From NCBI GenBank assembly GCA_014730235.1, contig WJIO01000234.1, positions 1 to 17,118 of the forward strand: a stretch of DNA of 17,118 bases, in the 5' to 3' direction. Origin of the DNA: Candidatus Poribacteria bacterium (GTDB lineage Bacteria > Poribacteria > DTPJ01 > WJIO01). Each line of letters opens with the position of its first letter. Within the stretch, counting starts at the first letter, position 1. Below are positions 5,193-17,118 of this stretch, piece by piece. The notes below the pieces were generated by a model, which saw only the letters and a list, made by a program, of their open reading frames with translations, had not been told where the DNA came from and did no database searches. A program made the position numbers and the translations under genes.

Positions 5193-6932
5193 ATGCCAAC
5201 ACTCAAAAGACTACTGGGATACCTCAAAAAATATTGGTTTTTCCTGTTACTTGCATTGCTTGCCTTGACCATTAATCGGGTGCTGACAATGGCTGTGCCG
5301 GAAATATCCCAACGGGCTATTGACATAGCCATAGGTCAGAAAAACTACAGCCTTCTGGTTATCCTTGCCATCAGCATAGTAGTTGTCACGATCTTCAGGG
5401 GTGTTTTCCATTTTGCCCAGGAATATACCCTTCAATACGCCGCTCAAAAAGCCATATATGATATCCGTAATACTATGTATGATCACCTCCAGCGTCTGCC
5501 CTTTAGCTTTTATGATAAATCCCAGACAGGTCAGTTGATCGCCAGGGCTACTGGTGATATTGATTCTTTACGCCGGTTCTTTACCTTCGGGATGCTCAAC
5601 TTCATAAGCAGCATATTTATATTCGTAGCTGTTCTTATTATAACTCTGATGAAAAACTGGCAGATGGCCCTTATTTCCCTTTCGGTTATGCCTGCCATTG
5701 CATACACAGGAACACGTTTTGGCCAGAAAATACGTCCTAAATTCAAAGAAATGCGCCAGAAACATGCCGATATAACTACTGCAATTCAGGAAAACGTAAC
5801 CGGAGCCAGCGTCGTCAGAACCTTTGCCCGGGAAGAACACGAGATCAAAAGATTCTCAAAACAGGTCTTTGGCCTGCTGAAAATGAATCTGGAAATAACA
5901 AAGCTATGGGCTTCGTATTTCCCATTTATGGATTTTATCGCAGTCGTGGGCAGGATCGCTATCCTGTGGTTTGGGGGATGGCAGATCATAAAGGGTAATC
6001 TAACCCTGGGTGAGTTTGTGGCTTTCAATATGTATCTGGTAATGCTTATGATGCCCGTAAGGATGCTGGGATTTATCATCAACGTATCTCAAGAGGCCAT
6101 AGCGTCGGGTCAGAGGATATTTGAAATACTGGATACCGAATCTGAGGTAAAGGAGTTAGATAATGCCAGAGCACTGCCGCCTATAAAAGGACTTATAAAA
6201 TTTGATGATGTATCCTTTAGCTACGAAACCGGCGATGGTCTGGTGCTTAAGAATTTCAGCCTTGAAGCAAAACCCGGGGAAACCATAGCTCTGTTAGGTG
6301 CTACCGGTTCGGGAAAAAGCACTGTGATAAACCTGATACCCAGGTTTTATGATCCCCTCTCCGGTAAAATAACCATTGATGGTATTGATATTAAGGAAGT
6401 GCAGTTAGAATCGCTAAGAAGACAGATCAGCATTGTTATGCAGGAAACATACCTCTTCGCCGCATCAATAAAAGACAATATAGCATATGGCAATACTGAA
6501 GCATCAATGGAGGAAATAGTAGAAGCCGCAAAAGCCGCAAATATACATGATTTTATCGTATCCCTGCCCAAAGGCTATGATACGGAGGTGGGTGAACGAG
6601 GTGTAACCCTCTCTGGAGGCCAAAAACAGCGCGTCGCCATCGCCCGGGCTTTGTTGATGAACCCAAGAATATTGATACTGGATGACTCCACATCCAGCGT
6701 AGATACCCAGACTGAACATATGATCCAGAACGCCCTTAACACTCTGTTAAAAGGCAGAACCGCTTTTGTTATTGCCCAGAGGTTATCTACAGTAAAACGG
6801 GCTGATAAAATTGTTATTCTGGAAGATGGTAAAATAGTGGAAAAGGGAACTCATGAATCACTCCTGAAAAAGGGTGGTATATACTCGGAGATATACGAAA
6901 TGCAGTTTAAACAGCAAGAGGAGGAAGACTAA
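5193..6932 (+). CDS. ABC exporter half-transporter with degenerate ATP site
   Basis: This 579-residue fusion of an exporter-type membrane domain (about 1-305, six hydrophobic helices) and an ATPase domain is one half of a heterodimeric exporter in the inner membrane. The Walker A motif is GATGSGKST (369-377), the Q-loop is Q417, and the signature is a canonical LSGGQ (473-477). Walker B ends ILILDD (493-498), so the catalytic Glu is replaced by D498, and the switch His is replaced by Q529 (VIAQRLS). The same two changes are known in TM287 of the Thermotoga TM287/288 exporter. The ATP site built on this subunit's Walker motifs should therefore bind but hydrolyse poorly. The ATG at 5193 has GGAGA 9 nt upstream. 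The stop is 4 nt before the ATG of the partner gene. Substrate unknown: drugs, lipids or peptides are all possible. Confidence 0.93.
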   Translation: MPTLKRLLGYLKKYWFFLLLALLALTINRVLTMAVPEISQRAIDIAIGQKNYSLLVILAISIVVVTIFRGVFHFAQEYTLQYAAQKAIYDIRNTMYDHLQRLPFSFYDKSQTGQLIARATGDIDSLRRFFTFGMLNFISSIFIFVAVLIITLMKNWQMALISLSVMPAIAYTGTRFGQKIRPKFKEMRQKHADITTAIQENVTGASVVRTFAREEHEIKRFSKQVFGLLKMNLEITKLWASYFPFMDFIAVVGRIAILWFGGWQIIKGNLTLGEFVAFNMYLVMLMMPVRMLGFIINVSQEAIASGQRIFEILDTESEVKELDNARALPPIKGLIKFDDVSFSYETGDGLVLKNFSLEAKPGETIALLGATGSGKSTVINLIPRFYDPLSGKITIDGIDIKEVQLESLRRQISIVMQETYLFAASIKDNIAYGNTEASMEEIVEAAKAANIHDFIVSLPKGYDTEVGERGVTLSGGQKQRVAIARALLMNPRILILDDSTSSVDTQTEHMIQNALNTLLKGRTAFVIAQRLSTVKRADKIVILEDGKIVEKGTHESLLKKGGIYSEIYEMQFKQQEEED

Positions 6933-6936
6933 AGTT

Positions 6937-8742
6937 ATGCGCGGGCCTCACATGCACTTTGATTCTGAAGAGGAATCCAACGTTGGATTTTATGATAAGC
7001 AACTTATGTCCCGGCTGATAAAGTTTGTCTCCCCTCATAAAGGCAAGCTTATAATCTCCCTTATACTAATGATTTTGGCTTCTGGATACAGCATGGTAAC
7101 GCCGTACCTGCAAAAAATTGCCATTGACGAATACATAATGCCACCGGATAAACCGGGAAACATAAACGGTCTTACCATGATAGCCCTTTTATATATAGGT
7201 CTGTCTATACTTAACGTTTTTATTTCCTTTGGACGCAGCTACATATTGGCCTGGATGGGGCAAAGCGTAATATATGATATAAGCGTTAAGCTTTTCTCTC
7301 ATATTCAAAAAATGTCTATGGAGTTTTTCGACAGAAGTGAAACCGGAAGGATAATCTCCCGAATTACCAACGATGTCCAGGCCCTGAATGAACTATTCAC
7401 CCGGGGTATAACGTCTATAATAGGTGACGTCGTAAGCATGATCGGTATAGTCGCTTTCATGCTTTATATGAATGTAAAACTGTCTCTTCTCAGCTTTACC
7501 CTGATCCCTTTGCTTTTTCTCGCGGGTATTTTGTTTCGCACCAAGGGCAGAAAGGCATTCCGGGAGGTACGGAAAAAGGTTGCCAACGTTACATCCAAGC
7601 TGGAGGAGGGAATTTCCGGCGTTCGCGTGGTAAAGTCCTTTTCCAGGGAGGACAAAAATATTGAGCATTTTGACAGAACCAACGAAGAAAACCTGTCAGC
7701 CAACATGCAGGCAGTCAAGGTATGGTCTATATATTTCCCCATCATAGAGGTAATAACAGCCGTCGGCACATCCATTGTTCTATGGAACGGCGGTGTCCAG
7801 ATAATGGGCGAACAACTCACCCGGGGTGAGTTGGTGGCCTTTCTGGGTTATGTGCATATGTTCTACATGCCGGTAAGACAGCTAAGCCGTATCTTTACAA
7901 CCATGCAGTCAGCCATGGCAGCCGCTGAACGTATATTTGAAATCCTTGATACAGAGCCGGAGGTTAAGGAATTACCCGATGCTGAGGAACTACCGGATAT
8001 TGTCGGCGAAGTTAAATACGAAGATGTATCTTTCGCCTATGAAGAAGATGAATATGTCCTCCATAACCTGAATCTAACTGCCGAACCGGGGCAGACCGTT
8101 GCCATTGTAGGCCCCACAGGCGCAGGTAAAAGCACTGTTGTTAATCTCCTGACCCGTCTTTATGATTTGGAAGAAGGTAATATTTATATAGATGGATATA
8201 ACATAAAAGATATAAAGCTCCATTCCCTGCGCAGTCAGATGGGAATAGTACTTCAGGACAGCTTCCTGTTTTCGGGAACCATAAGGGATAACATAGTCTA
8301 CGGAAATCTGGATGCTTCTGAGGAAGATATGATCCGGGCTTCTGAAGCCGTAAGCGCTCATCGGTTCATATCCCAGTTGCCAAAGGGATACGATACGGAG
8401 GTAGGAGAAAGAGGGGCAAAGCTGTCCATCGGTCAAAGGCAGTTGGTATCTTTCGCCAGGGCCTTGCTTGCCGATCCCAGGATACTGATTCTGGACGAAG
8501 CAACCTCAAGCGTTGATGCCTATACTGAAGTGTTAATACAAAAAGCTCTGGAAAAGCTGCTGAAAAACAGAACGTCCTTTGTTATCGCCCACAGGCTTTC
8601 AACCATCGTTAATGCTGATAAACTTATCGTTCTTGATAATGGTCGCATTGTGGAAACAGGTACACATCAGGAGCTTCTGGATAAAAATGGCCTATATAAA
8701 AAGCTGTATGACATGCAGTTTGTGTCCGAATCTGCATCATGA
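6937..8742 (+). CDS. ABC exporter half-transporter with catalytic ATP site
   Basis: This is the 601-residue partner of the preceding protein, with the same membrane-domain plus ATPase layout. Walker A is GPTGAGKST (392-400), the Q-loop is Q440, Walker B is ILILDE (516-521) with the catalytic Glu E521, and the switch His is H552. Its signature is LSIGQ (496-500) instead of LSGGQ, and this is the motif that faces the degenerate site of the partner. The working ATP site thus pairs this subunit's Walker motifs with the partner's LSGGQ, a classic asymmetric exporter. I chose the ATG at 6937 (opening MRGPHMHFDS, typical of this family) over an upstream in-frame GTG at 6874, which would overlap the partner by 59 bases. 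AGGAGG at 6919-6924 serves it, 12 nt away. Translation is probably coupled to the upstream gene. Confidence 0.93.
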   Translation: MRGPHMHFDSEEESNVGFYDKQLMSRLIKFVSPHKGKLIISLILMILASGYSMVTPYLQKIAIDEYIMPPDKPGNINGLTMIALLYIGLSILNVFISFGRSYILAWMGQSVIYDISVKLFSHIQKMSMEFFDRSETGRIISRITNDVQALNELFTRGITSIIGDVVSMIGIVAFMLYMNVKLSLLSFTLIPLLFLAGILFRTKGRKAFREVRKKVANVTSKLEEGISGVRVVKSFSREDKNIEHFDRTNEENLSANMQAVKVWSIYFPIIEVITAVGTSIVLWNGGVQIMGEQLTRGELVAFLGYVHMFYMPVRQLSRIFTTMQSAMAAAERIFEILDTEPEVKELPDAEELPDIVGEVKYEDVSFAYEEDEYVLHNLNLTAEPGQTVAIVGPTGAGKSTVVNLLTRLYDLEEGNIYIDGYNIKDIKLHSLRSQMGIVLQDSFLFSGTIRDNIVYGNLDASEEDMIRASEAVSAHRFISQLPKGYDTEVGERGAKLSIGQRQLVSFARALLADPRILILDEATSSVDAYTEVLIQKALEKLLKNRTSFVIAHRLSTIVNADKLIVLDNGRIVETGTHQELLDKNGLYKKLYDMQFVSESAS

Positions 8743-8856
8743 TGAAAGAAAATGAGATAAACTTTGAGGAATTTATAACGTCTATTTATTGGGTATTTGC
8801 TTGTAATAAAATTGTGTATTCTGGATAAAGTTTAAAAATGAGAAAATTCATATGCT

Positions 8857-8926
8857 GTCATTCTTGCGAAGGCAGGAATCCAGAAGCCTAATATGATGAC
8901 TGGATTCCTGCCTTTGAAAGAATGAC
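8857..8926. repeat. Long palindromic repeat related to the MITE core hairpins
   Basis: The arms 8857-8883 and 8900-8926 match at 25 of 27 positions (GTCATTCTT...GGCAGGAATCCAG) around a 16-nt loop. The outer part is a variant of the GTCATTCCTGC stem found at 4811 and 5091, and the flank to its right also shares AGAAAATTTTCAAAT with copy 1. No GG-type ends or target duplication were found around it. It may also act as a transcription end or mRNA-stabilising structure for the exporter genes. Confidence 0.8.
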
Positions 8927-9032
8927 ATGCTTAGAAAATTTTCAAATATTCTATATGTTTTCCTAAGTAAATGACATTCGGATTAAGGGGGATTCCCAGC
9001 ACAACAGAAAACCTTTAAATCATTTTATAGAA

Positions 9033-9102: not shown

Positions 9103-9158
9103 TATAAACGCCAGCCGGGGAGGAAGTAATTTTGTTAGGAAACTTAAGAGGGAGTAAA

Positions 9159-12100
9159 ATGCCAAAGACTTTCACTGCGTTCCTTGCTTGTACGTTAGTC
9201 TTTGTTCTAGCGTATTCTGTTGCATCAGCGGATTTCTTCAAAAATAATCTGCTGCAAGTTGTAGATAGTCAATATAAAGATAAAGTATTCGGCGGAGATC
9301 AACAGCAGGAGCTTATCATCAAATTCACGCCAACCGTTGAATACGACGCTTACGCCGAGGACGTTCCCGATGCTGATTTTGATGAAAGCGTGGATGTAGT
9401 TGACAGCGCATACGATGACGAGACCTTCGGCGGCAGTGATCAGCAGGAATTGATTATATCTTTTACCCCTGAACTTACTAACGACGAAGGGGAATCAAGC
9501 AATGCCGATGGTGATTATGCCATCATTGTTGATACAGATGACGATAACGATTTTGACGACGATGACATCCTTTATCTTGGTACCGCTGTAGATGGTGAAC
9601 CTGTGACTTATCGTCTTCACGTAAACCGGCTTTCAGGTATACCCGATGGTCGTTACGAAGTTGCTGTAATTCTCGATAACGTGGCCAATGGCAAAATTGA
9701 CTGGGACGTGGCCGAAGAGGATTCTGAACGCTTTGTGCTTGATCGGGATATGACGATATACGACGTGGCCGTCAATCCTGAAATATTCTCGCCAAATGGT
9801 GACAATGTGAGGGATACGGTAAACATTTACTACAGCCTAAGCGATAATGTCTATGGCAACGATTCCAGTATAACCATAACCATAGGTGAAGGTAAGCTGG
9901 CAGCACCTGCAAAGCCCAAACCCGGAACAAGGGAAGGTAAAAACGTTGTAACATGGAATGGTAAGGATGCCCTGGGTAACTATGTGGAAGATGGCACTTA
10001 CACTATAGTTATTGAAGTTATGGATAAGGCTGGAAACGAAGCCACAGCCAGTATTGAGGTAGAGGTTAGAACAGAACTTCCCGAAGTCGCCGTAACTGTT
10101 CCTGAGATGGACTCTTACGTGTCTACCCTTACCGAGGTTAGCGCAACGTTGCAGGATAACAGCGGCGAGGGCATTGATCTGGATCAGTCCGAGATCGGCT
10201 TGCTGGATCCCGATGGTAATACGGTTGCTGGTGAAAAGCGGGACAACGGCTCTGATACCCTTCGATGGAAAATCACAACCCCATTCCCCGGCGATGGTTC
10301 TGCCGATGGCAGATACAGCATAGTCGTTACTGCTGTGGATAATGCCGGAAATTCCGCTCAGACTTCATACCCATTCTTCCTGGATACTGTAATACCTGAC
10401 GTGGTATCAGTTATGCCCCCTGACGACAGCTTCCTCTCTTCATCACCTTCAGAAATTACCGTTGTAATGAACGATGGAAGCGGAAGCGGACCCAACCTGA
10501 ATGCCGTCAGAGATACCATGATGTTAAAGCTTGACGGTGAATCAATTCCCGGCAGGATTACCCATAACGGCACTACTACTGTTAAATTCCAGCCCTTGCA
10601 GGACCTGGAAGAGGGAACTTACACCATCGAGATAACACCCATTGACATAGCGGGTAATAGTCTTGGACAGGCTTTAAAATATAACTTCACTATTATTGAA
10701 CAAATATCCGACATGTTCCCTGAGATAGTTTCTACAGAGCCAGCCGAAAGGGCTATGGTCAATAGCCTATCTCAGGTTAGCGCAGTATTGCAGAGCAATG
10801 TGGGTAAAGATATAGACCTTGAAAATTCCACCATAAGACTGGAAAACCCCGACGGTGTGGAAGTAACTGGTATCCAGACAGATGATGATGAATCCACCAT
10901 CACATGGGAACTCAGCGCACCCCTGCCCACCGACGGTACAGCCGATGGAACATATACAATTAAAGTGGTTGCCATTGATGACAGCGAAGCAACTAACGAA
11001 GAGAGCTTTGAATTTATTTACGACACCCAGGTTCCAGAGCTTTTAACAGTAACGCCTGAGAACGACAGCATGGTAACTGAAGCGCCTACGCAGATAGTTA
11101 TTACTGTAGCCGATAACACGACCAATGGTATTGACTTTGCCGCCAGCAAAGAATCCATGACCCTCAGCGTTGACGGTATGGAAATCCCCAACATACTGAA
11201 ACAGGACAACGGAGTTGATACAATAACCTTCAGCTTCGACGAGTTGGAAAACACCGGCAAGTATACCATGCTTGTAACACTCGTTGATAAAGCCGGAAAC
11301 CAGCACACATATCAATCTAAATTTGAATATGTGGAAGAGCCGGGTGACTTCTATCCTGACATAGCAAATGTTGAACCTGCTAACCGTTCTGCGGTAAACC
11401 TGATGACTCATGTCACAGCAACCTTAACCGACAACAGCGGTAAAGGTATTGATCTGGAACAGTCAACCATCAGGCTTGAGGATTCAACTGGAACAGAAAT
11501 TCCCGGTATACAGATAGATGACGACGATTCCACCATTACATGGGAACTGAATTCACCGTTACCAACTGATGGAACTGCCGACGGCGTGTATACCATAAAG
11601 GTAAAAGCCGCCGACAGGTCAGGTCGTGAAACTGAGTATACATCAACATTTACTTTCGATACCCAGGTTCCCGAGCTTTTGACTATAACCCCTGAAAACG
11701 ACAGCATGGTAACAGTAGCACCTACTCAGGTTGTGATTACTGTTACCGACGGCACAGGAAGCGGGATAGACTTCGCAGCCAGCAAGGCATCTATGGCCCT
11801 TATGCTGGAAGGCGTTGAAATTCCCAACATAGTAAGAGAGGACAACGGCATTGATACCATGACCTTCAGCTTCGCTGAGCTTGAAGAAACAGGTAAATAT
11901 ACCGTCCAGGTAAGTCTTATAGATAAAGCCGGAAACCAGCAGACATATCAGCCGGGATTTGAATATGTGGAAGAACCCCAGGACTTCTATCCCGACGTTG
12001 TTTCAGTTGAACCAGCAGAAAGGTCTTATGTAAATACTGTAACCCAGGTTACAGCCGTTCTCGTTGACAACAGCGATAAGGGCATAGACCTGGAACAATC

Positions 12101-15100
12101 AACCATTAGGCTTGAAAACTCAGCCGGTGAAGTAATCCCCGGTATTCAGATAGATGACGATGATTCCACCATCACGTGGGAACTGAATTCACCGTTGCCC
12201 ACAGATGGAACTGTTGACGGCGTATATACAATAAGGGTAAAGGCCATTGACAGGTCGGGAAGAGAAACTCAGTATTCATCCACATTCACCTACGACACCC
12301 AGGTTCCTGAGCTTACGTCTCTCGAACCAGCCGACGGCAGTGTATTGACCGAATCCCCCACCGTCATCACCGCCAAAGTTACCGACGGTAAAGGAAGTGG
12401 TGTTGATTTTGCAGCCAGCAAAGAGTCTATGGCTCTTATGCTAAACGGTGCGGAGATTCCCAATATAGTAAGGGAGGATAACGGTGTTGATACTATTAAC
12501 TTCACCTTTGCCCAACTGGAAGAACTGGGTAAATACACAGTACAATTGACTCTTAGCGATAAAGCCGGAAATGCTCAGACTTACAACTCAACCTTTGATC
12601 TGGTGGAGAAGAGCACAGATCTGCTTCCTGAAGTTGTGTCTGTAGATCCGCCAGAACGTTCTTTTGTGAACTCTCTGTTTCAGGTTTCCGCTGTGTTGCA
12701 GGACAACAGCGGCAAAGGACTGGATCTGGAAATGTCTACCATAATACTTGAGAATCCCGACGGTACAGTGGTAGCAGGCGTGCAGACTGACGATGATGAT
12801 TCTACAATAACATGGGAGCTGAATTCACCGTTGCCCACCGACGGCACAGCCGACGGAACGTATACTATCATTATAAAAGCTGTAGATAAAGCAGGCGGTG
12901 AGACGGATTACACTTCTACGTTCCTGTATGATACGTTAGAGGTAGAGGTTACATCTGTAACACCCGCTGACGGCGTAGTGTTGACAACAGCACCTACAGA
13001 GGTAGTGATACAGGTAACAGACGGTGCAGGAAGCGGAGTGGACTTCGCAGGAAGTCTTGAGAGCATGACGTTAAGTAACGTAGACCCGGAACGCATACTG
13101 CGTAAGGACAACGGCGTTGACACCATGACCTTCAGCTTCCCTGCTCTGGAAGATACGGGCCGATACACAGTGGACATAAACCTTATGGATAAAGCAGGTA
13201 ACCAGTATCCATATCAGGTTGAGTTCGACTACGTGGAGAAGAGCACCGACCTGCTGCCGGAAGTTGTGTCTGTAGATCCGGCGGAACGTTCTTTTGTGAA
13301 CTCTCTGTTTCAGGTTTCCGCTGTGTTGCAGGACAACAGCGGCAAAGGACTGGATCTGGAAATGTCTACCATAATACTTGAGAATCCCGACGGTACAGTG
13401 GTAGCAGGCGTGCAGACTGACGACGATGATTCTACAATAACATGGGAGCTGAATTCACCGTTGCCTACAAACGGCACAGCCGACGGAACATATACTATAA
13501 AGGTAAAAGCTGTGGACAAAACAGGCGGTGAGACGGATTACACTTTTACATTCCTTTATGACACACTTTCACCTTCGGTTGTATCCACCACACCAACTGC
13601 CAGCGATGTATTCTACGAGGGTATATCCCAGGTTACAGTGCAGCTTAACGACGGTGACGGAAGCGGCGTTGATCTGGATAATACTACGGTAACATTGCAG
13701 GGACCTGCTGGTGAAGTGGAGGCAGATAAAAACGATAATGGTGTAGATACTATAGTTCTCACGTTCTCAGCTTTAACAGAAGGTGGAAATTATACCATTA
13801 ATATCAGTCCAATGGACAGAGCCGGTAATTCGGGTTATCCTGTGACTGTTAAATTCTCCTATGTGCTTAAAGCCCCGGCTGTTGTGTCGGTAAGCCTGAC
13901 CAACCAGGCTTATGTAAAGACCCTGGACAGCATCGAAGCTGTATTGGAAGACCGCAGCGGCATAGGCCTTGACCTTTCGGAAACAGGCTCATCCATAGTT
14001 GTTACCGGGCCTGATGGTGAAATACAGGCTGACCAGACAAGCGTCGGCGAAGACACTCTGGTATGGAGTCCGGTTCATGCATTGGCTGATGACGGAACAG
14101 ACGATGGCGTATATACTGTAGTAGTAACACCAGTGGATACAACAGGAGCCAGCGGTCAGAGCCGCAGTTATACGGTTATATACGACACCCAGCCGCCGGA
14201 GGTAACATCGGCTTCACCTGTGGATATAAACGCAGATGTGACGCACATTGGCGAACAGTTGGTATCTGTAGAAGCCACACTGGTTGATGAAGGGCCTGCT
14301 GAGATAGAGATAGAAGACCAGCAGATATACCTGGAAGCCCAGGACGGCACTCAAATAGCCGGTGTAAAGACTGATAATGATGCTGACACAGTAAAATGGC
14401 GACTGAGTAAACCTTTAGCCAGGGACGGCAGCGCCGATGGTCTTTACAATGTGGTTGTATTGGCTGCGGATAAGGCCGGTAACCAGAGCGAATTCCGCTA
14501 TCCGTTGATGTATGATACTGTAGTTCCGGAAGTGCTGGAGGTAACTCCGGCGGATGATAGCCTGCTGGAAGCCGATATAACAGAGGTATCAGTTAAATTA
14601 CAGGATAACGAAGACGGTGAAATAGACTTCCAGAATTCGTCTATCCAGCTTCTTGATCCTAATGGTAACAATGTTTCAGGCGTGCTTAAGAACGATGGCA
14701 ACGAAAATATGACTTTGACCATATCCGGCTTGGATGAGAACGGAACCTTTACGGTTCTGGTGACTGCTGTGGATAAAGCAGGTAATGGTCTAGGGCTTAC
14801 TCATAGAACAGAGTTTGTATATGAAACAGGCCTTCCTGTGGTTTATTCCACAACGCCTATTACCGATTCAGCGGAAAGGGCATACCAGAGAACTCAACTA
14901 ATGGAAGTCAGGGCTGTGCTTCGGGCAACAGGCGGCGGAGGTATAAACCTTCTGCCTACAGGATCGACAATTGGCCTTAAAGGCCCTAACGGCAATATGC
15001 TGGTGGGTACCCAGTCTAATAACGGCGTAAATACTTTGATATTTAGACTAAGCCGACCCAGAGCTATTGACGGTACAGAGGATGGTGAATATGCCATTGT

Positions 15101-17118
15101 TGTTACCCCTGTAAACAACGCTAAACGCAAAGGCGAGGAAGAGGAACTTAAATTTATATATGACACCCAAAGCCCTGAGGTAGTATCGGTAACAAACCTA
15201 AACATAAAAGCTGATGTTTCGTATGTAAGTCAGCAGATAACTCAGTTGATAGCTACCCTTCAGGATGAAGGACTGGCAGGTATTGACATGTCCAAATCAT
15301 CCATGAGGCTTATCGATCCTAACGGTAACGCAGTTGACATGGATATGAGTAATAATGACGTTGATACCATAACAATTGAATTTCCCAATGGTCTATCAGT
15401 TGAAGGCAGATACATGCTTGAGATTACGGCTATGGACAAAGCCGGAAACAGCGCGCTGGAACGAATCAACTTTGTGTATTCAGTAAGTATGCCGGAAATT
15501 GTGTCTACAACTCCGACAACTATTCCAGCGGATGACGCATATGTAAACACAGAGGTTAGAGATGTAAGGGCTGAATTGGATGAAACAGGCAACAGCGGTA
15601 TCGATTTTTCACCTACTGGCTCTACCATAAGGCTAAGGGGCCCCAATGGAAACACCCTTGCTGGAGTGCAGAGCAACGACAGTGATAACACACTGATATA
15701 TACCCTTACAAAGCCGCTGGCTGCTGATGGTTCGGATGATGGTGTTTATACTATAGTTGTTACACCTGTGAACGCCGCCAAACTTAAGGGCGACGTTCAG
15801 GAACTTACATTTACATATGATACTGTAGCACCTGAGGTTGATATAGACGATATTATATTCTATTATGATATTGAAGCGGGTAATTCCCTTATCAGCATAT
15901 CGGCAGTTGTTACCGATGATGAACCAAGTTCCCAGATTGACTGGAAAAACGCAGACGGAAGCTGGATGAAGCTTGAAAATTCCAGCGGTCAGGATATACC
16001 CGGTATTGTTACTTTCAATAGAGAGGAATCAACTATCAACTTTGAGCTGGACGTATCGTTAGCCAGCAACGGAAGCGAAGACGGCTTCTATACGGTTATA
16101 ATTGATCCAGCAGACAAGGCCGGTAATAAGCCGGATTCAGCCATACAATATGAGTTCCTTTATGATACACGTCCACCAACTGTCAATAAAGCTGATATAA
16201 CCATAAATGAAAAGGTACTGCTGCTGGATTCATCCCTGGAAGAATATCCCACATCCCTTAACTCCAAGAGCGGTGTTACAATTGTGGCGAGTATGGAAGA
16301 TAGCGGAGTGGGTGTAGACCTGACCAGATCATCCATCAATATTACATCTCCTGACGGAAATATGATCTCCGGTAGTCTGATGCAGAACGGCATTGATACC
16401 ATCTGGTTTACCTCTGGGCCTTTGAGTGTGGAAGGTATATACTCAGTAGAGATAAACCCGGTTGATCTGGATGAAAACGGTTCCGGTAATTCAACAGAAA
16501 CAGTATTTACTGAATTCCTGTTTGATATTACCAGTCCAGTAGTTACAATAGAACCACCTTTAGATACGGAATCGGAAGATGAACCCATAAAGCTTCAGGG
16601 AACAGCAAGTGATCCGGGAAATCTATATAAGAATATTGGTTCATCTAGCGAAGAAGAAGGCGGAAATAAAATCGCTTCGGGTGTTGCTAAAGTTGAGATC
16701 GGTGGCGTTGGCCCTGGCGGAAAGCAGATTGACTGGATAGAAGCTGTTGACAAAAGCGAAGGAGATGAGATTCCCTGGAGCATATGGGAACTGGAATTCA
16801 TGCCCATTGAATCGGGAACTTATGATATAGAGATAAGAGTTTGGGATGAAGCAGGTAACTTTGAGATTTATGCCACAGACATTGAGCTTGAGTTTACCGT
16901 TTCCCTGGCCTTCCATGGAGACGCATACTGCTGGCCCAATCCCGTTACTGCTGGGGTGGCTCATATATCCTTTAAGCTCAACGTGCCGGGGAATCAAAAA
17001 GCTGACTTGACCCTTTACGTTTACGATGTTAGCGGCGATCTTGTATACGAGCATAAGTATTCGGGAGGTGTAACTTCCATGTCACGCACCAGTGTTGAAT
17101 GGGACTGCACAAACAACA
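9159..17118 (+). CDS. Giant secreted Ig-like repeat protein (at least 2653 residues, 3' end outside window)
   Basis: This frame is open from the ATG at 9159 to the right edge. GAGGGAG lies 4 nt upstream. Residues 1-24 form a signal peptide ending in ASA, so the protein is exported. Next come two copies of an unknown 25-residue motif (34-58 and 80-104), an acidic stretch (DTDDDNDFDDDD, 125-136), and a FlgD/CHU_C-like Ig module with FSPNGD at 210-215 and DGTYT (278-282) (about 197-304). Then 21 tandem Ig-like modules of about 105 residues follow (307-2583), recognised by Y/FDT...P at the boundaries, DNG/DDDxxTITW mid-strand motifs, DG-rich turns, YT.. strands and D.AGN near the ends. Residue 2584 onward (YCWPNP, then YDVSG) starts a C-terminal FlgD-like module that resembles secretion or anchoring tails, so the stop is probably near. 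There is no Cys between residues 11 and 2591. Likely a surface fibre or adhesin; the ligand is unknown. Confidence 0.92.
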   Translation, partial: MPKTFTAFLACTLVFVLAYSVASADFFKNNLLQVVDSQYKDKVFGGDQQQELIIKFTPTVEYDAYAEDVPDADFDESVDVVDSAYDDETFGGSDQQELIISFTPELTNDEGESSNADGDYAIIVDTDDDNDFDDDDILYLGTAVDGEPVTYRLHVNRLSGIPDGRYEVAVILDNVANGKIDWDVAEEDSERFVLDRDMTIYDVAVNPEIFSPNGDNVRDTVNIYYSLSDNVYGNDSSITITIGEGKLAAPAKPKPGTREGKNVVTWNGKDALGNYVEDGTYTIVIEVMDKAGNEATASIEVEVRTELPEVAVTVPEMDSYVSTLTEVSATLQDNSGEGIDLDQSEIGLLDPDGNTVAGEKRDNGSDTLRWKITTPFPGDGSADGRYSIVVTAVDNAGNSAQTSYPFFLDTVIPDVVSVMPPDDSFLSSSPSEITVVMNDGSGSGPNLNAVRDTMMLKLDGESIPGRITHNGTTTVKFQPLQDLEEGTYTIEITPIDIAGNSLGQALKYNFTIIEQISDMFPEIVSTEPAERAMVNSLSQVSAVLQSNVGKDIDLENSTIRLENPDGVEVTGIQTDDDESTITWELSAPLPTDGTADGTYTIKVVAIDDSEATNEESFEFIYDTQVPELLTVTPENDSMVTEAPTQIVITVADNTTNGIDFAASKESMTLSVDGMEIPNILKQDNGVDTITFSFDELENTGKYTMLVTLVDKAGNQHTYQSKFEYVEEPGDFYPDIANVEPANRSAVNLMTHVTATLTDNSGKGIDLEQSTIRLEDSTGTEIPGIQIDDDDSTITWELNSPLPTDGTADGVYTIKVKAADRSGRETEYTSTFTFDTQVPELLTITPENDSMVTVAPTQVVITVTDGTGSGIDFAASKASMALMLEGVEIPNIVREDNGIDTMTFSFAELEETGKYTVQVSLIDKAGNQQTYQPGFEYVEEPQDFYPDVVSVEPAERSYVNTVTQVTAVLVDNSDKGIDLEQSTIRLENSAGEVIPGIQIDDDDSTITWELNSPLPTDGTVDGVYTIRVKAIDRSGRETQYSSTFTYDTQVPELTSLEPADGSVLTESPTVITAKVTDGKGSGVDFAASKESMALMLNGAEIPNIVREDNGVDTINFTFAQLEELGKYTVQLTLSDKAGNAQTYNSTFDLVEKSTDLLPEVVSVDPPERSFVNSLFQVSAVLQDNSGKGLDLEMSTIILENPDGTVVAGVQTDDDDSTITWELNSPLPTDGTADGTYTIIIKAVDKAGGETDYTSTFLYDTLEVEVTSVTPADGVVLTTAPTEVVIQVTDGAGSGVDFAGSLESMTLSNVDPERILRKDNGVDTMTFSFPALEDTGRYTVDINLMDKAGNQYPYQVEFDYVEKSTDLLPEVVSVDPAERSFVNSLFQVSAVLQDNSGKGLDLEMSTIILENPDGTVVAGVQTDDDDSTITWELNSPLPTNGTADGTYTIKVKAVDKTGGETDYTFTFLYDTLSPSVVSTTPTASDVFYEGISQVTVQLNDGDGSGVDLDNTTVTLQGPAGEVEADKNDNGVDTIVLTFSALTEGGNYTINISPMDRAGNSGYPVTVKFSYVLKAPAVVSVSLTNQAYVKTLDSIEAVLEDRSGIGLDLSETGSSIVVTGPDGEIQADQTSVGEDTLVWSPVHALADDGTDDGVYTVVVTPVDTTGASGQSRSYTVIYDTQPPEVTSASPVDINADVTHIGEQLVSVEATLVDEGPAEIEIEDQQIYLEAQDGTQIAGVKTDNDADTVKWRLSKPLARDGSADGLYNVVVLAADKAGNQSEFRYPLMYDTVVPEVLEVTPADDSLLEADITEVSVKLQDNEDGEIDFQNSSIQLLDPNGNNVSGVLKNDGNENMTLTISGLDENGTFTVLVTAVDKAGNGLGLTHRTEFVYETGLPVVYSTTPITDSAERAYQRTQLMEVRAVLRATGGGGINLLPTGSTIGLKGPNGNMLVGTQSNNGVNTLIFRLSRPRAIDGTEDGEYAIVVTPVNNAKRKGEEEELKFIYDTQSPEVVSVTNLNIKADVSYVSQQITQLIATLQDEGLAGIDMSKSSMRLIDPNGNAVDMDMSNNDVDTITIEFPNGLSVEGRYMLEITAMDKAGNSALERINFVYSVSMPEIVSTTPTTIPADDAYVNTEVRDVRAELDETGNSGIDFSPTGSTIRLRGPNGNTLAGVQSNDSDNTLIYTLTKPLAADGSDDGVYTIVVTPVNAAKLKGDVQELTFTYDTVAPEVDIDDIIFYYDIEAGNSLISISAVVTDDEPSSQIDWKNADGSWMKLENSSGQDIPGIVTFNREESTINFELDVSLASNGSEDGFYTVIIDPADKAGNKPDSAIQYEFLYDTRPPTVNKADITINEKVLLLDSSLEEYPTSLNSKSGVTIVASMEDSGVGVDLTRSSINITSPDGNMISGSLMQNGIDTIWFTSGPLSVEGIYSVEINPVDLDENGSGNSTETVFTEFLFDITSPVVTIEPPLDTESEDEPIKLQGTASDPGNLYKNIGSSSEEEGGNKIASGVAKVEIGGVGPGGKQIDWIEAVDKSEGDEIPWSIWELEFMPIESGTYDIEIRVWDEAGNFEIYATDIELEFTVSLAFHGDAYCWPNPVTAGVAHISFKLNVPGNQKADLTLYVYDVSGDLVYEHKYSGGVTSMSRTSVEWDCTNN
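9258..9470 (+). repeat. Duplicated 25-residue N-terminal motif of the giant protein
   Basis: Residues 34-58 (9258-9332) and 80-104 (9396-9470) agree at 18 of 25 positions. The pattern is VVDSxYxDxxFGG, two variable residues, then QQELIIxFTP. The copies are 46 residues apart, separated by an acidic linker. They follow directly after the signal peptide. I do not recognise this as a known domain. Confidence 0.8.
9747..10070 (+). other. FlgD/CHU_C-like Ig module within the giant protein
   Basis: Residues about 197-304 include FSPNGDNVRDTVNIYYSLSD, TWNGKDALGNYVEDGTYT and MDKAGN. This order (FSPNGD, W-G-DxxGN, DGTYT, DxAGN) is that of FlgD-like and gliding-motility-associated Ig modules, which often cap or anchor secreted repeat proteins. 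It precedes the tandem repeat region. Confidence 0.75.
12603..12934 (+). repeat. Recently duplicated A module, copy 1
   Basis: This segment is nearly identical to 13233-13564, exactly 630 bp downstream. Positions 12654-12793 and 13284-13423 are the same at every one of 140 bases, including silent positions, and the identity continues after one change. Confidence 0.9.
13233..13564 (+). repeat. Recently duplicated A module, copy 2
   Basis: Partner of 12603-12934. Differences cluster at the ends: PPERS versus PAERS on the left, and PTDG versus PTNG, TIIIKAVDKAG versus TIKVKAVDKTG on the right. This suggests a conversion tract with defined borders. Confidence 0.9.
14832..15170 (+). repeat. Variant A module with PTGST insertion, copy 1
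   Basis: This module shares PTGSTIxLxGPNGNxL, QSN...NTLI, DGxxDGxYxIVVTPVNxAK and a charged KGEEEEL loop with 15489-15827. The pair is 657 bp apart, a second and different super-repeat (variant A plus B). Confidence 0.75.
15489..15827 (+). repeat. Variant A module with PTGST insertion, copy 2
   Basis: Partner of 14832-15170, with PTGSTIRLRGPNGNTL and VVTPVNAAKLKGDVQEL. The two copies are clearly related in protein but more diverged in DNA than the 12603/13233 pair. Confidence 0.75.
16908..17118 (+). other. Start of C-terminal FlgD/PNP-type module of the giant protein
   Basis: Residues 2584-2653 show YCWPNPV, HISFKLNVPG, LYVYDVSGDLVYEH and VEWDCTNN. This is the PNP...SF.L...V.D..G.LV...W.G.N order of C-terminal FlgD-like or sorting-type modules. 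About 20-30 further residues would complete such a module, so the stop codon is probably just outside the window. It holds two Cys residues (2591 and 2650), the only ones in the mature part that can be seen. Confidence 0.65.

What the first reader, a model, noticed from the sequence alone, without database searches (positions are those of the whole stretch)
9159..17118. Giant exported protein with 21 Ig-like modules in two alternating types
A single frame of at least 7960 bp encodes a signal peptide, unknown N-terminal repeats, a FlgD-like module, 21 Ig-like modules and a C-terminal FlgD/PNP-type module. The strict A/B alternation with a 636-bp period in the first half is unusual and suggests that the functional unit is an A+B pair. 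The DDDDST and DNGxDT motifs in every module could bind Ca2+ and rigidify a fibre.
Basis: partly seen in the sequence, partly recalled or inferred. Interest (0 to 1): 0.6.

Follow-up and report, generated by a model that had tools for sequence, protein, structure and literature searches.

The report
Giant surface fibre with alternating joints
This gene encodes a very long protein, built like beads on a string, that probably sticks out from the bacterial surface and in which calcium seems to lock only some of the joints between beads, in a pattern that repeats every two beads here and every three in many related bacteria.

Summary
One frame (9159-17117 +, 2,653 aa, no stop) encodes a signal peptide, two FlgD-like modules, 20 homologous Ig-like modules, a divergent 21st and a C-terminal FlgD/PorU-type domain cut by the contig end. 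Contig C40 starts with the missing tail, then a PorV/PorQ-family barrel gene. Relatives across the phylum carry the same giant gene, usually with that partner (23 of 26 loci). A and B modules share one CopC/Ig fold; they differ at the joints. A-to-next joints carry the side-chain positions of the inter-repeat Ca2+ site of RTX adhesins (DG, linker D, loop D/E, DxAGN); B-to-A joints lack three of the four. Linker Asp covaries with Asn of the next module (OR 10.6, p 1.5e-14 after de-duplication; 28 of 28 proteins positive). The period is 2 here but 3, 4 or 5 in relatives, so the pair is not a universal unit. DDDDST and DNGxDT share one alignment position and are not the joint ligands. Best reading: a Ca2+-stiffened surface fibre, exported by a divergent type IX-like route (SprA-like protein in 83 of 84 phylum genomes) and anchored by its own PorQ-like barrel. 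Ca2+ binding, export and adhesion are inferred.

The parts
9147..9154 (+). Shine-Dalgarno-like AGAGGGAG before ATG 9159
   Evidence: read from the sequence
9159..17117 (+). Giant Ig-like surface protein, 2,653 codons, open at the contig end; continues on contig C40
9159..9230 (+). Sec signal peptide MPKTFTAFLACTLVFVLAYSVASA, aa 1-24
   Evidence: read from the sequence; not run through a predictor
9258..9332 (+). Partial copy of the start of the next module (VVDSQYKDKVFGGDQQQELIIKFTP), aa 34-58
   Evidence: low-confidence part of the model
9378..9749 (+). FlgD-like beta-sandwich module 1 (degenerate), aa 74-197
   Evidence: alignment A3 with 17 relatives, model, fold match
9750..10073 (+). FlgD-like beta-sandwich module 2 (FSPNGDNVRDT...), aa 198-305
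   Evidence: PF13860 stretch at aa 258-288 (26.6-27.2 bits at cut-off 27)
10074..14183 (+). Ig-like modules 1-13, strict A/B alternation (A 103-105 aa, B 103-110 aa)
14184..16523 (+). Ig-like modules 14-20, order A B A B A A B
16524..16913 (+). Divergent module 21, aa 2456-2585 (13-24% identity to the others)
16914..17117 (+). C-terminal FlgD/PorU-type sorting domain, first two thirds; the rest lies on contig C40
11580..11582 (+). Example Ca2+-type joint A5-B6: Asp808 of DGVYT, 26 residues before the linker Asp
   Evidence: same spacing as Asp95-Asp121 of MhLap (PMC7493085)
11658..11663 (+). Example joint A5-B6: linker Asp834-Thr835
11748..11750 (+). Example joint A5-B6: loop Asp864, +30 from the linker Asp
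   Evidence: +28 in MhLap (PMC7493085)
11922..11936 (+). Example joint A5-B6: DKAGN of B6, Asn926 at +92 from the linker Asp
   Evidence: +84 in MhLap (PMC7493085)
12621..12929 (+). Module 9, near-copy of module 11 (13251-13559): 93.9% DNA identity, recent duplication or conversion

Best explanation
The gene encodes a cell-surface fibre about 23 domains long. Steps: (1) Sec export by the N-terminal signal peptide [read from sequence]. (2) Crossing of the outer membrane by a divergent type IX-like translocon that recognises the C-terminal FlgD/PorU-type domain [inferred; an SprA-like protein, C25 peptidases and PorV-family barrels are encoded in the same genome]. (3) Hand-over to, and probably retention by, a dedicated PorV/PorQ-family barrel encoded immediately downstream, as PorU is held by PorV and PorZ by PorQ in Porphyromonas [inferred]. 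(4) The 21 Ig modules extend the fibre. Joints after A modules are clamped by a Ca2+ ion bound by DG of the first module, the linker Asp, a loop Asp/Glu and Asn of DxAGN in the second. Joints after B modules lack this site and are longer, so they act as hinges or are fixed in another way [ligand pattern shown by covariation; metal and mechanics inferred]. (5) The fibre grows and shrinks by duplication of blocks of modules, which fixes a lineage-specific period [period and copy-number differences shown by comparison; duplication inferred from them]. Likely use: adhesion, spacing or matrix contact [inferred].
For: Module anatomy and period. Relatives: 38 of 39 phylum genomes match the query, with frames of about 2,100-4,000 aa, and 23 of 26 loci have a PorV-like gene directly downstream; partner checked by profile NF033709 at 145, 127 and 145 bits against cut-off 90. 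Own partner on C40. CTD: NF033707 PorU region in 25 of 25, FlgD_ig in 25 of 25, TIGR04183 in 10 of 25; PDB profile hit PorU 6za2 E 7e-9. Translocon: SprA_N in 37 of 39 genomes, 0 of 14 controls; SprA-like protein in 83 of 84 genomes, 55 of 55 good ones; TIGR04189 182 bits; C25 peptidase 12 of 12. Joints: linker Asp of n-1 versus Asn of module n [[123,20],[32,55]], OR 10.6, p 1.5e-14; opposite sign for the Asn of n-1 itself, OR 0.2; strongest at offset 0 in both period-2 and period-3 proteins, 28 of 28 proteins positive. Spacings 26/30/89-92 in the regular half against 26/28/84 in MhLap (PMC7493085). Fold: pLDDT 96, SiiE TM 0.47-0.51, SiiE E 2.4e-14. D+E 461 against K+R 143, pI 4.05.
Against: TIGR04189 is below its equivalog cut-off (182 and 143 against 200), so the SprA-like protein is a distant relative. 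GldM and GldN, parts of the type IX motor and ring, were not found, though the GldN search had no positive control. In the window itself the TIGR04183 score is below cut-off because the domain is cut. The join with C40 has no sequence overlap and rests on homology. No ligand-binding tip domain was recognised, so adhesion is not shown. Three of 26 loci lack an immediate PorV-like neighbour.
Confidence: 0.62

Rival explanations
1. The A/B alternation has no mechanical meaning. It is only the record of tandem duplication of two-module blocks, and the joint pattern is carried along with the blocks.
For: Period differs between lineages (2, 3, 4, 5), m9 and m11 are 94% identical in DNA, lengths vary 2,100-4,000 aa within the phylum.
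Against: The association of linker Asp with the next module's Asn holds within period-2 and period-3 proteins, has opposite sign for the neighbouring Asn, and survives removal of similar pairs. A modules that follow an A module (m14, m19) carry DxAGN, while A modules that follow a B module do not.
Confidence: 0.2
2. It is a T1SS-type RTX giant adhesin like SiiE or MpIBP.
For: Closest solved modules are SiiE and MpAFP; NF033510 Ca2+-stabilized adhesin repeat just above cut-off (52.7 against 50).
Against: N-terminal Sec signal peptide; C-terminal FlgD/PorU-type domain in place of RTX nonapeptides, none listed by Pfam; PorV-family gene next door.
Confidence: 0.03
3. It is a periplasmic or inner-envelope scaffold (FlgD-like capping or tether), not a surface fibre.
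For: FlgD-like modules at both ends; no recognised ligand-binding domain.
Against: The C-terminal domain is closest to that of PorU, which is on the outer surface held by PorV (PMC5562754), and the downstream partner is an outer-membrane barrel family.
Confidence: 0.1
4. Assembly artefact: repeats collapsed or expanded in a metagenome assembly.
For: Fragmented assembly (451 contigs), near-identical modules 9 and 11.
Against: Frame open over 7.96 kb; the same architecture in relatives, including single-contig genomes G019, G035 and G037. The exact module count may still be off by a pair.
Confidence: 0.05

Closest known systems
SiiE of Salmonella (BIg50-52, PDB 2yn3/2yn5)
   Same: Tandem Ig-like modules; type I inter-domain Ca2+ site with Asp of n-1 and two Asp of n (PMC5466336); best profile hit, E 2.4e-14
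   Different: T1SS substrate; 53 BIg domains, most with ligands for two Ca2+ ions; here only joints after A modules keep the ligand set, and the C-terminus is type IX-like
MhLap, AhLap and MpIBP extender regions (6xi3, 6xi1, 4p99)
   Same: Beta-sandwich extenders with inter-repeat Ca2+; MhLap ligand spacing 26/28/84 against 26/30/89-92 here (PMC7493085)
   Different: Ca2+ at the solved joints, single-module repeats, RTX/T1SS export
SprB-SprF of Flavobacterium johnsoniae
   Same: Very large surface adhesin whose shuttle barrel is encoded immediately downstream (PMC12618676)
   Different: Type B CTD and PorP/SprF barrel there; PorU-type CTD and PorV/PorQ-family barrel here
PorU-PorV and PorZ-PorQ of Porphyromonas gingivalis
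   Same: CTD closest to PorU (6za2, E 7e-9) and weakly PorZ (5m11, E 0.045); partner scores best against PorQ among the type IX equivalog models (84 bits); PorU and PorZ keep their CTD, PorU is held by PorV and PorZ needs PorQ for outer-membrane association (PMC5562754)
   Different: Those are secretion-system enzymes or factors, not fibres; the partner here is below the PorQ and PorV equivalog cut-offs
Titin I-band Ig arrays
   Same: Tandem Ig modules; structural match I67-I69 Z 10.1; super-repeat organisation known from general knowledge
   Different: No homology claimed; a eukaryotic intracellular protein

Membership tests
RTX (T1SS) giant adhesins | Tandem beta-sandwich extender with inter-repeat Ca2+ ligands | tested here: met
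   sequence ligand pattern with matching spacing at A-to-next joints only; metal itself not tested
RTX (T1SS) giant adhesins | C-terminal RTX nonapeptides and T1SS signal | tested here: not met
   C-terminus is FlgD/PorU-type; N-terminal Sec signal peptide
NF033510 Ca2+-stabilized adhesin repeat | Score over curated cut-off of 50 bits | tested here: met
   52.7 bits, two stretches; marginal
Bacterial Ig-like Big_13 / CopC-fold modules | Score over gathering cut-off and fold | tested here: met
   PF19077 230 bits at 27; CopC fold Z 12.8-14.2
Type IX secretion cargo, type A CTD | Sec signal peptide plus C-terminal domain over TIGR04183 cut-off | tested here: inconclusive
   window domain cut, 21.1 bits at cut-off 23; close relative G001 27.8; 10 of 25 relatives match at E<=0.01
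Type IX secretion cargo, type A CTD | SprA/Sov translocon in the genome | tested here: inconclusive
   SprA-like in 83 of 84 phylum genomes; TIGR04189 182 bits at cut-off 200
Type IX secretion cargo, type A CTD | PorL/M motor and PorK/N ring | tested here: inconclusive
   GldM 0 of 12, GldN 0 of 12 without a positive control; GldL and GldK not tested
Type IX cargo, type B (SprB-SprF) | PorP/SprF barrel encoded next to the substrate | tested here: not met
   partner matches NF033709 PorV/PorQ family and no PorP family
PorV/PorQ family (partner gene) | NF033709 cut-off of 90 bits | tested here: met
   145.4 bits, C40:206-1147

The most novel reading that the evidence does not exclude
A surface fibre in which calcium-clamped and calcium-free joints follow a genetically encoded rhythm, giving stiff blocks of two modules in this order and of three or more in other families of the phylum, exported by a phylum-wide, divergent type IX-like translocon that lacks the known motor genes and kept on the cell by its own PorQ-like barrel. 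If the phylum is Poribacteria, this supplies the secretion route that was reported missing in 2014.
Probability: 0.35. Interest if true: 0.75.

Novelty: new variant of a known kind. Interest (0 to 1): 0.57.

Why it matters
The solved Ca2+ extender fibres carry the ion at their joints. Here the ligand set is present or absent joint by joint in a rhythm, and the rhythm differs between lineages, so evolution seems to tune where a fibre bends; this can be tested with one three-module construct. The genome context also bears on an open question. Kamke et al. (PMC3909097) found type IX sorting domains in Poribacteria but no structural genes of the secretion system. The SprA-like protein, PorV-family barrels and C25 peptidases found here are candidates for it, if this phylum is Poribacteria.

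Tried and rejected
TRF finds no array, because module copies are too diverged and the period exceeds its limit. Genome-contig search gave only four distant hits, so no named relative. Loop-pattern calling of A and B by regular expression failed and was replaced by profile columns. DDDDST/DNGxDT as the joint site was rejected: both map to one alignment position in each module and are not among the columns that covary most with the linker in the following module. Type I secretion rejected by the C-terminus. Type B (SprB-like) partner rejected by family scan. PhyH count as a phylum marker: zero in the window's own genome, G001 and G016, 56 to 140 in six others, so the Poribacteria label is plausible but not proved. 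The absence of SiiE from the best 50 rows says nothing; Foldseek lists it.

Full report
OBSERVATION. The window is a whole contig, C163 of a 5.53 Mb genome bin in 451 contigs. A single frame runs from ATG 9159 to the last codon at 17117, 2,653 codons without a stop. The first 24 residues read as a Sec signal peptide. Residues 306-2585 divide into 20 mutually homologous Ig-like modules and a divergent 21st. Modules 1-13 alternate strictly between type A (103-105 aa, with a longer PLPTDGTADG loop) and type B (103-110 aa); the rest run A B A B A A B. Mean identity between modules is 47% at lag 2 and 29% at lag 1, z 6.7 against shuffled order.

COMPLETING THE ANATOMY. The C-terminal domain is cut by the contig end. 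Contig C40 of the same genome begins with 33 codons that continue it (DKVVTGIYVYRLEAELPDGQKANKVGKPMIIKN, stop), with about two codons missing between the contigs by comparison with relatives; there is no overlap, so the join rests on homology and gene order. The next gene on C40 is a 314-aa PorV/PorQ-family barrel, NF033709 145 bits at cut-off 90.

RELATIVES. The first 414 residues find matches in 38 of 39 genomes of the phylum. The corresponding genes are about 2,100 to 4,000 aa, and in 23 of 26 loci the immediate downstream gene is PorV-like (checked by profile in three, the others by their shared C-terminal sequence). In G003 a PorV-like gene follows one gene later (by eye); G016 and G004 are exceptions. 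C-terminal domains of 25 relatives all match the C-terminal part of the PorU model and FlgD_ig; ten match TIGR04183. A profile of them finds PorU (6za2, E 7e-9) and weakly PorZ (5m11, E 0.045) in the PDB.

FOLD OF A AND B. AlphaFold2 of A5-B6-A7 with 110 related stretches gives pLDDT 96 and pTM 0.73. Module A matches CopC at Z 12.8 and B at Z 14.2, so they are the same fold. DDDDST of A and DNGxDT of B fall at the same alignment columns. Among solved proteins the closest by profile is SiiE, the giant Ca2+ adhesin of Salmonella, E 2.4e-14, then MpAFP, E 0.005; SiiE also has the highest TM-scores in the first fifty Foldseek rows (0.47/0.51).

JOINTS. In SiiE the inter-domain (type I) Ca2+ site uses an Asp of module n-1 and two Asp of module n (PMC5466336). 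In MhLap the ligands are Asp95, Asp121, the backbone of Thr123, Asp149 and Asn205 (PMC7493085). In the window the corresponding positions are the Asp of DGxY, the linker Asp 26 residues later, a loop Asp 30 after that and the Asn of DxAGN 89-92 after it in the regular half. These are present at m1-2, 3-4, 5-6, 7-8, 9-10, 11-12 and 14-15, and with longer spacing at 13-14, 16-17 and 18-19. They are degenerate at 19-20 and 20-21. At the eight B-to-A joints the DG Asp, the DT-type linker Asp and the Asn are all missing. Over all relatives, 230 interfaces after removal of similar pairs, the linker Asp predicts the Asn of the next module (odds ratio 10.6, p 1.5e-14), also the DG Asp/Asn of the module before (odds ratio 7.1) and the loop Asp/Glu (odds ratio 4.4), and is negatively linked to the Asn of the module before (odds ratio 0.2). 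The association peaks at offset 0 in period-2 and in period-3 proteins and is positive in all 28 proteins. The p-values treat interfaces as independent; shared ancestry makes them too small, which is why the offset test and the A-after-A cases (m14, m19) matter more.

PERIOD. Identity by lag gives period 2 in the window, its nearest relative G001, and G003, G004, G033 and G037; period 3 in twelve others; 4 in G013; 5 in G007; mixed 3 and 5 in G034; none clear in several. So the pair is not a universal unit. Modules near the C-terminus are the best conserved between period-3 relatives. Modules 9 and 11 share 93.9% of their DNA, showing recent block duplication or conversion.

SECRETION CONTEXT. 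Every good-quality genome of the phylum (55 of 55; 83 of 84 overall) encodes an SprA-like protein; the own copy scores 182 bits on TIGR04189 at cut-off 200 and has a LysM domain. C25 (PorU-type) peptidases are in 12 of 12 genomes. GldM and GldN were not found, which is inconclusive. Kamke et al. reported type IX sorting domains in Poribacteria without secretion genes (PMC3909097). High PhyH counts in six phylum members fit the PhyH abundance reported there, but the window's own order has none, so the name Poribacteria is an inference.

MECHANISM. Most likely a surface fibre: Sec export, outer-membrane passage by a type IX-like translocon, and retention by a dedicated PorQ-like barrel, as PorU is held by PorV and PorZ depends on PorQ (PMC5562754), and as SprB is paired with the downstream SprF (PMC12618676). 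Ca2+ would clamp joints after A modules; joints after B modules would bend or be held otherwise. Shown: anatomy, homology, gene pairing, covariation, period change. Inferred: metal, mechanics, route, anchoring, adhesion.

NOVELTY. Module type, Ca2+ joint and type IX CTD are each known. New is their combination and the encoded rhythm of clamped and unclamped joints with a lineage-specific period. In the papers searched I found no report of either; the library is incomplete. Verdict: new variant of a known kind, interest 0.57.

Noticed in passing
G000 contig C249 (L054:2282-18589 -): A second giant Ig-like protein of 5,436 aa, with a PorV-family gene upstream, a PorP/SprF-like plus TPR gene downstream and a PilQ-type secretin nearby.
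   Followed up: partly
L070:1-627, 734-1438, 16704-17708; L058:330-1205, 17133-17924; L069, L071, L072: Many small proteins, several with a signal-peptide-like start, end in a short motif TTWGxLK; candidate C-terminal sorting or anchoring tag of this phylum.
   Followed up: no
L088:1644-8534: The SprA-like translocon of the window's genome carries a LysM domain at aa 113-159; Pfam listed none in the copy of G035.
   Followed up: no
window 8850-8935: Imperfect palindrome (GTCATTCTTGCGAAGGCAGGAATCCAG ... CTGGATTCCTGCCTTTGAAAGAATGAC) between the ABC transporter pair and the giant gene; looks like a small mobile repeat.
   Followed up: no
window 5193-8742: Two adjacent ABC exporter half-transporters directly upstream; no such link seen in relatives, so probably unrelated.
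   Followed up: partly
G000, 51 places: The genome has 51 FlgD_ig matches, mostly in large frames: a large set of possible type IX-like cargo.
   Followed up: no
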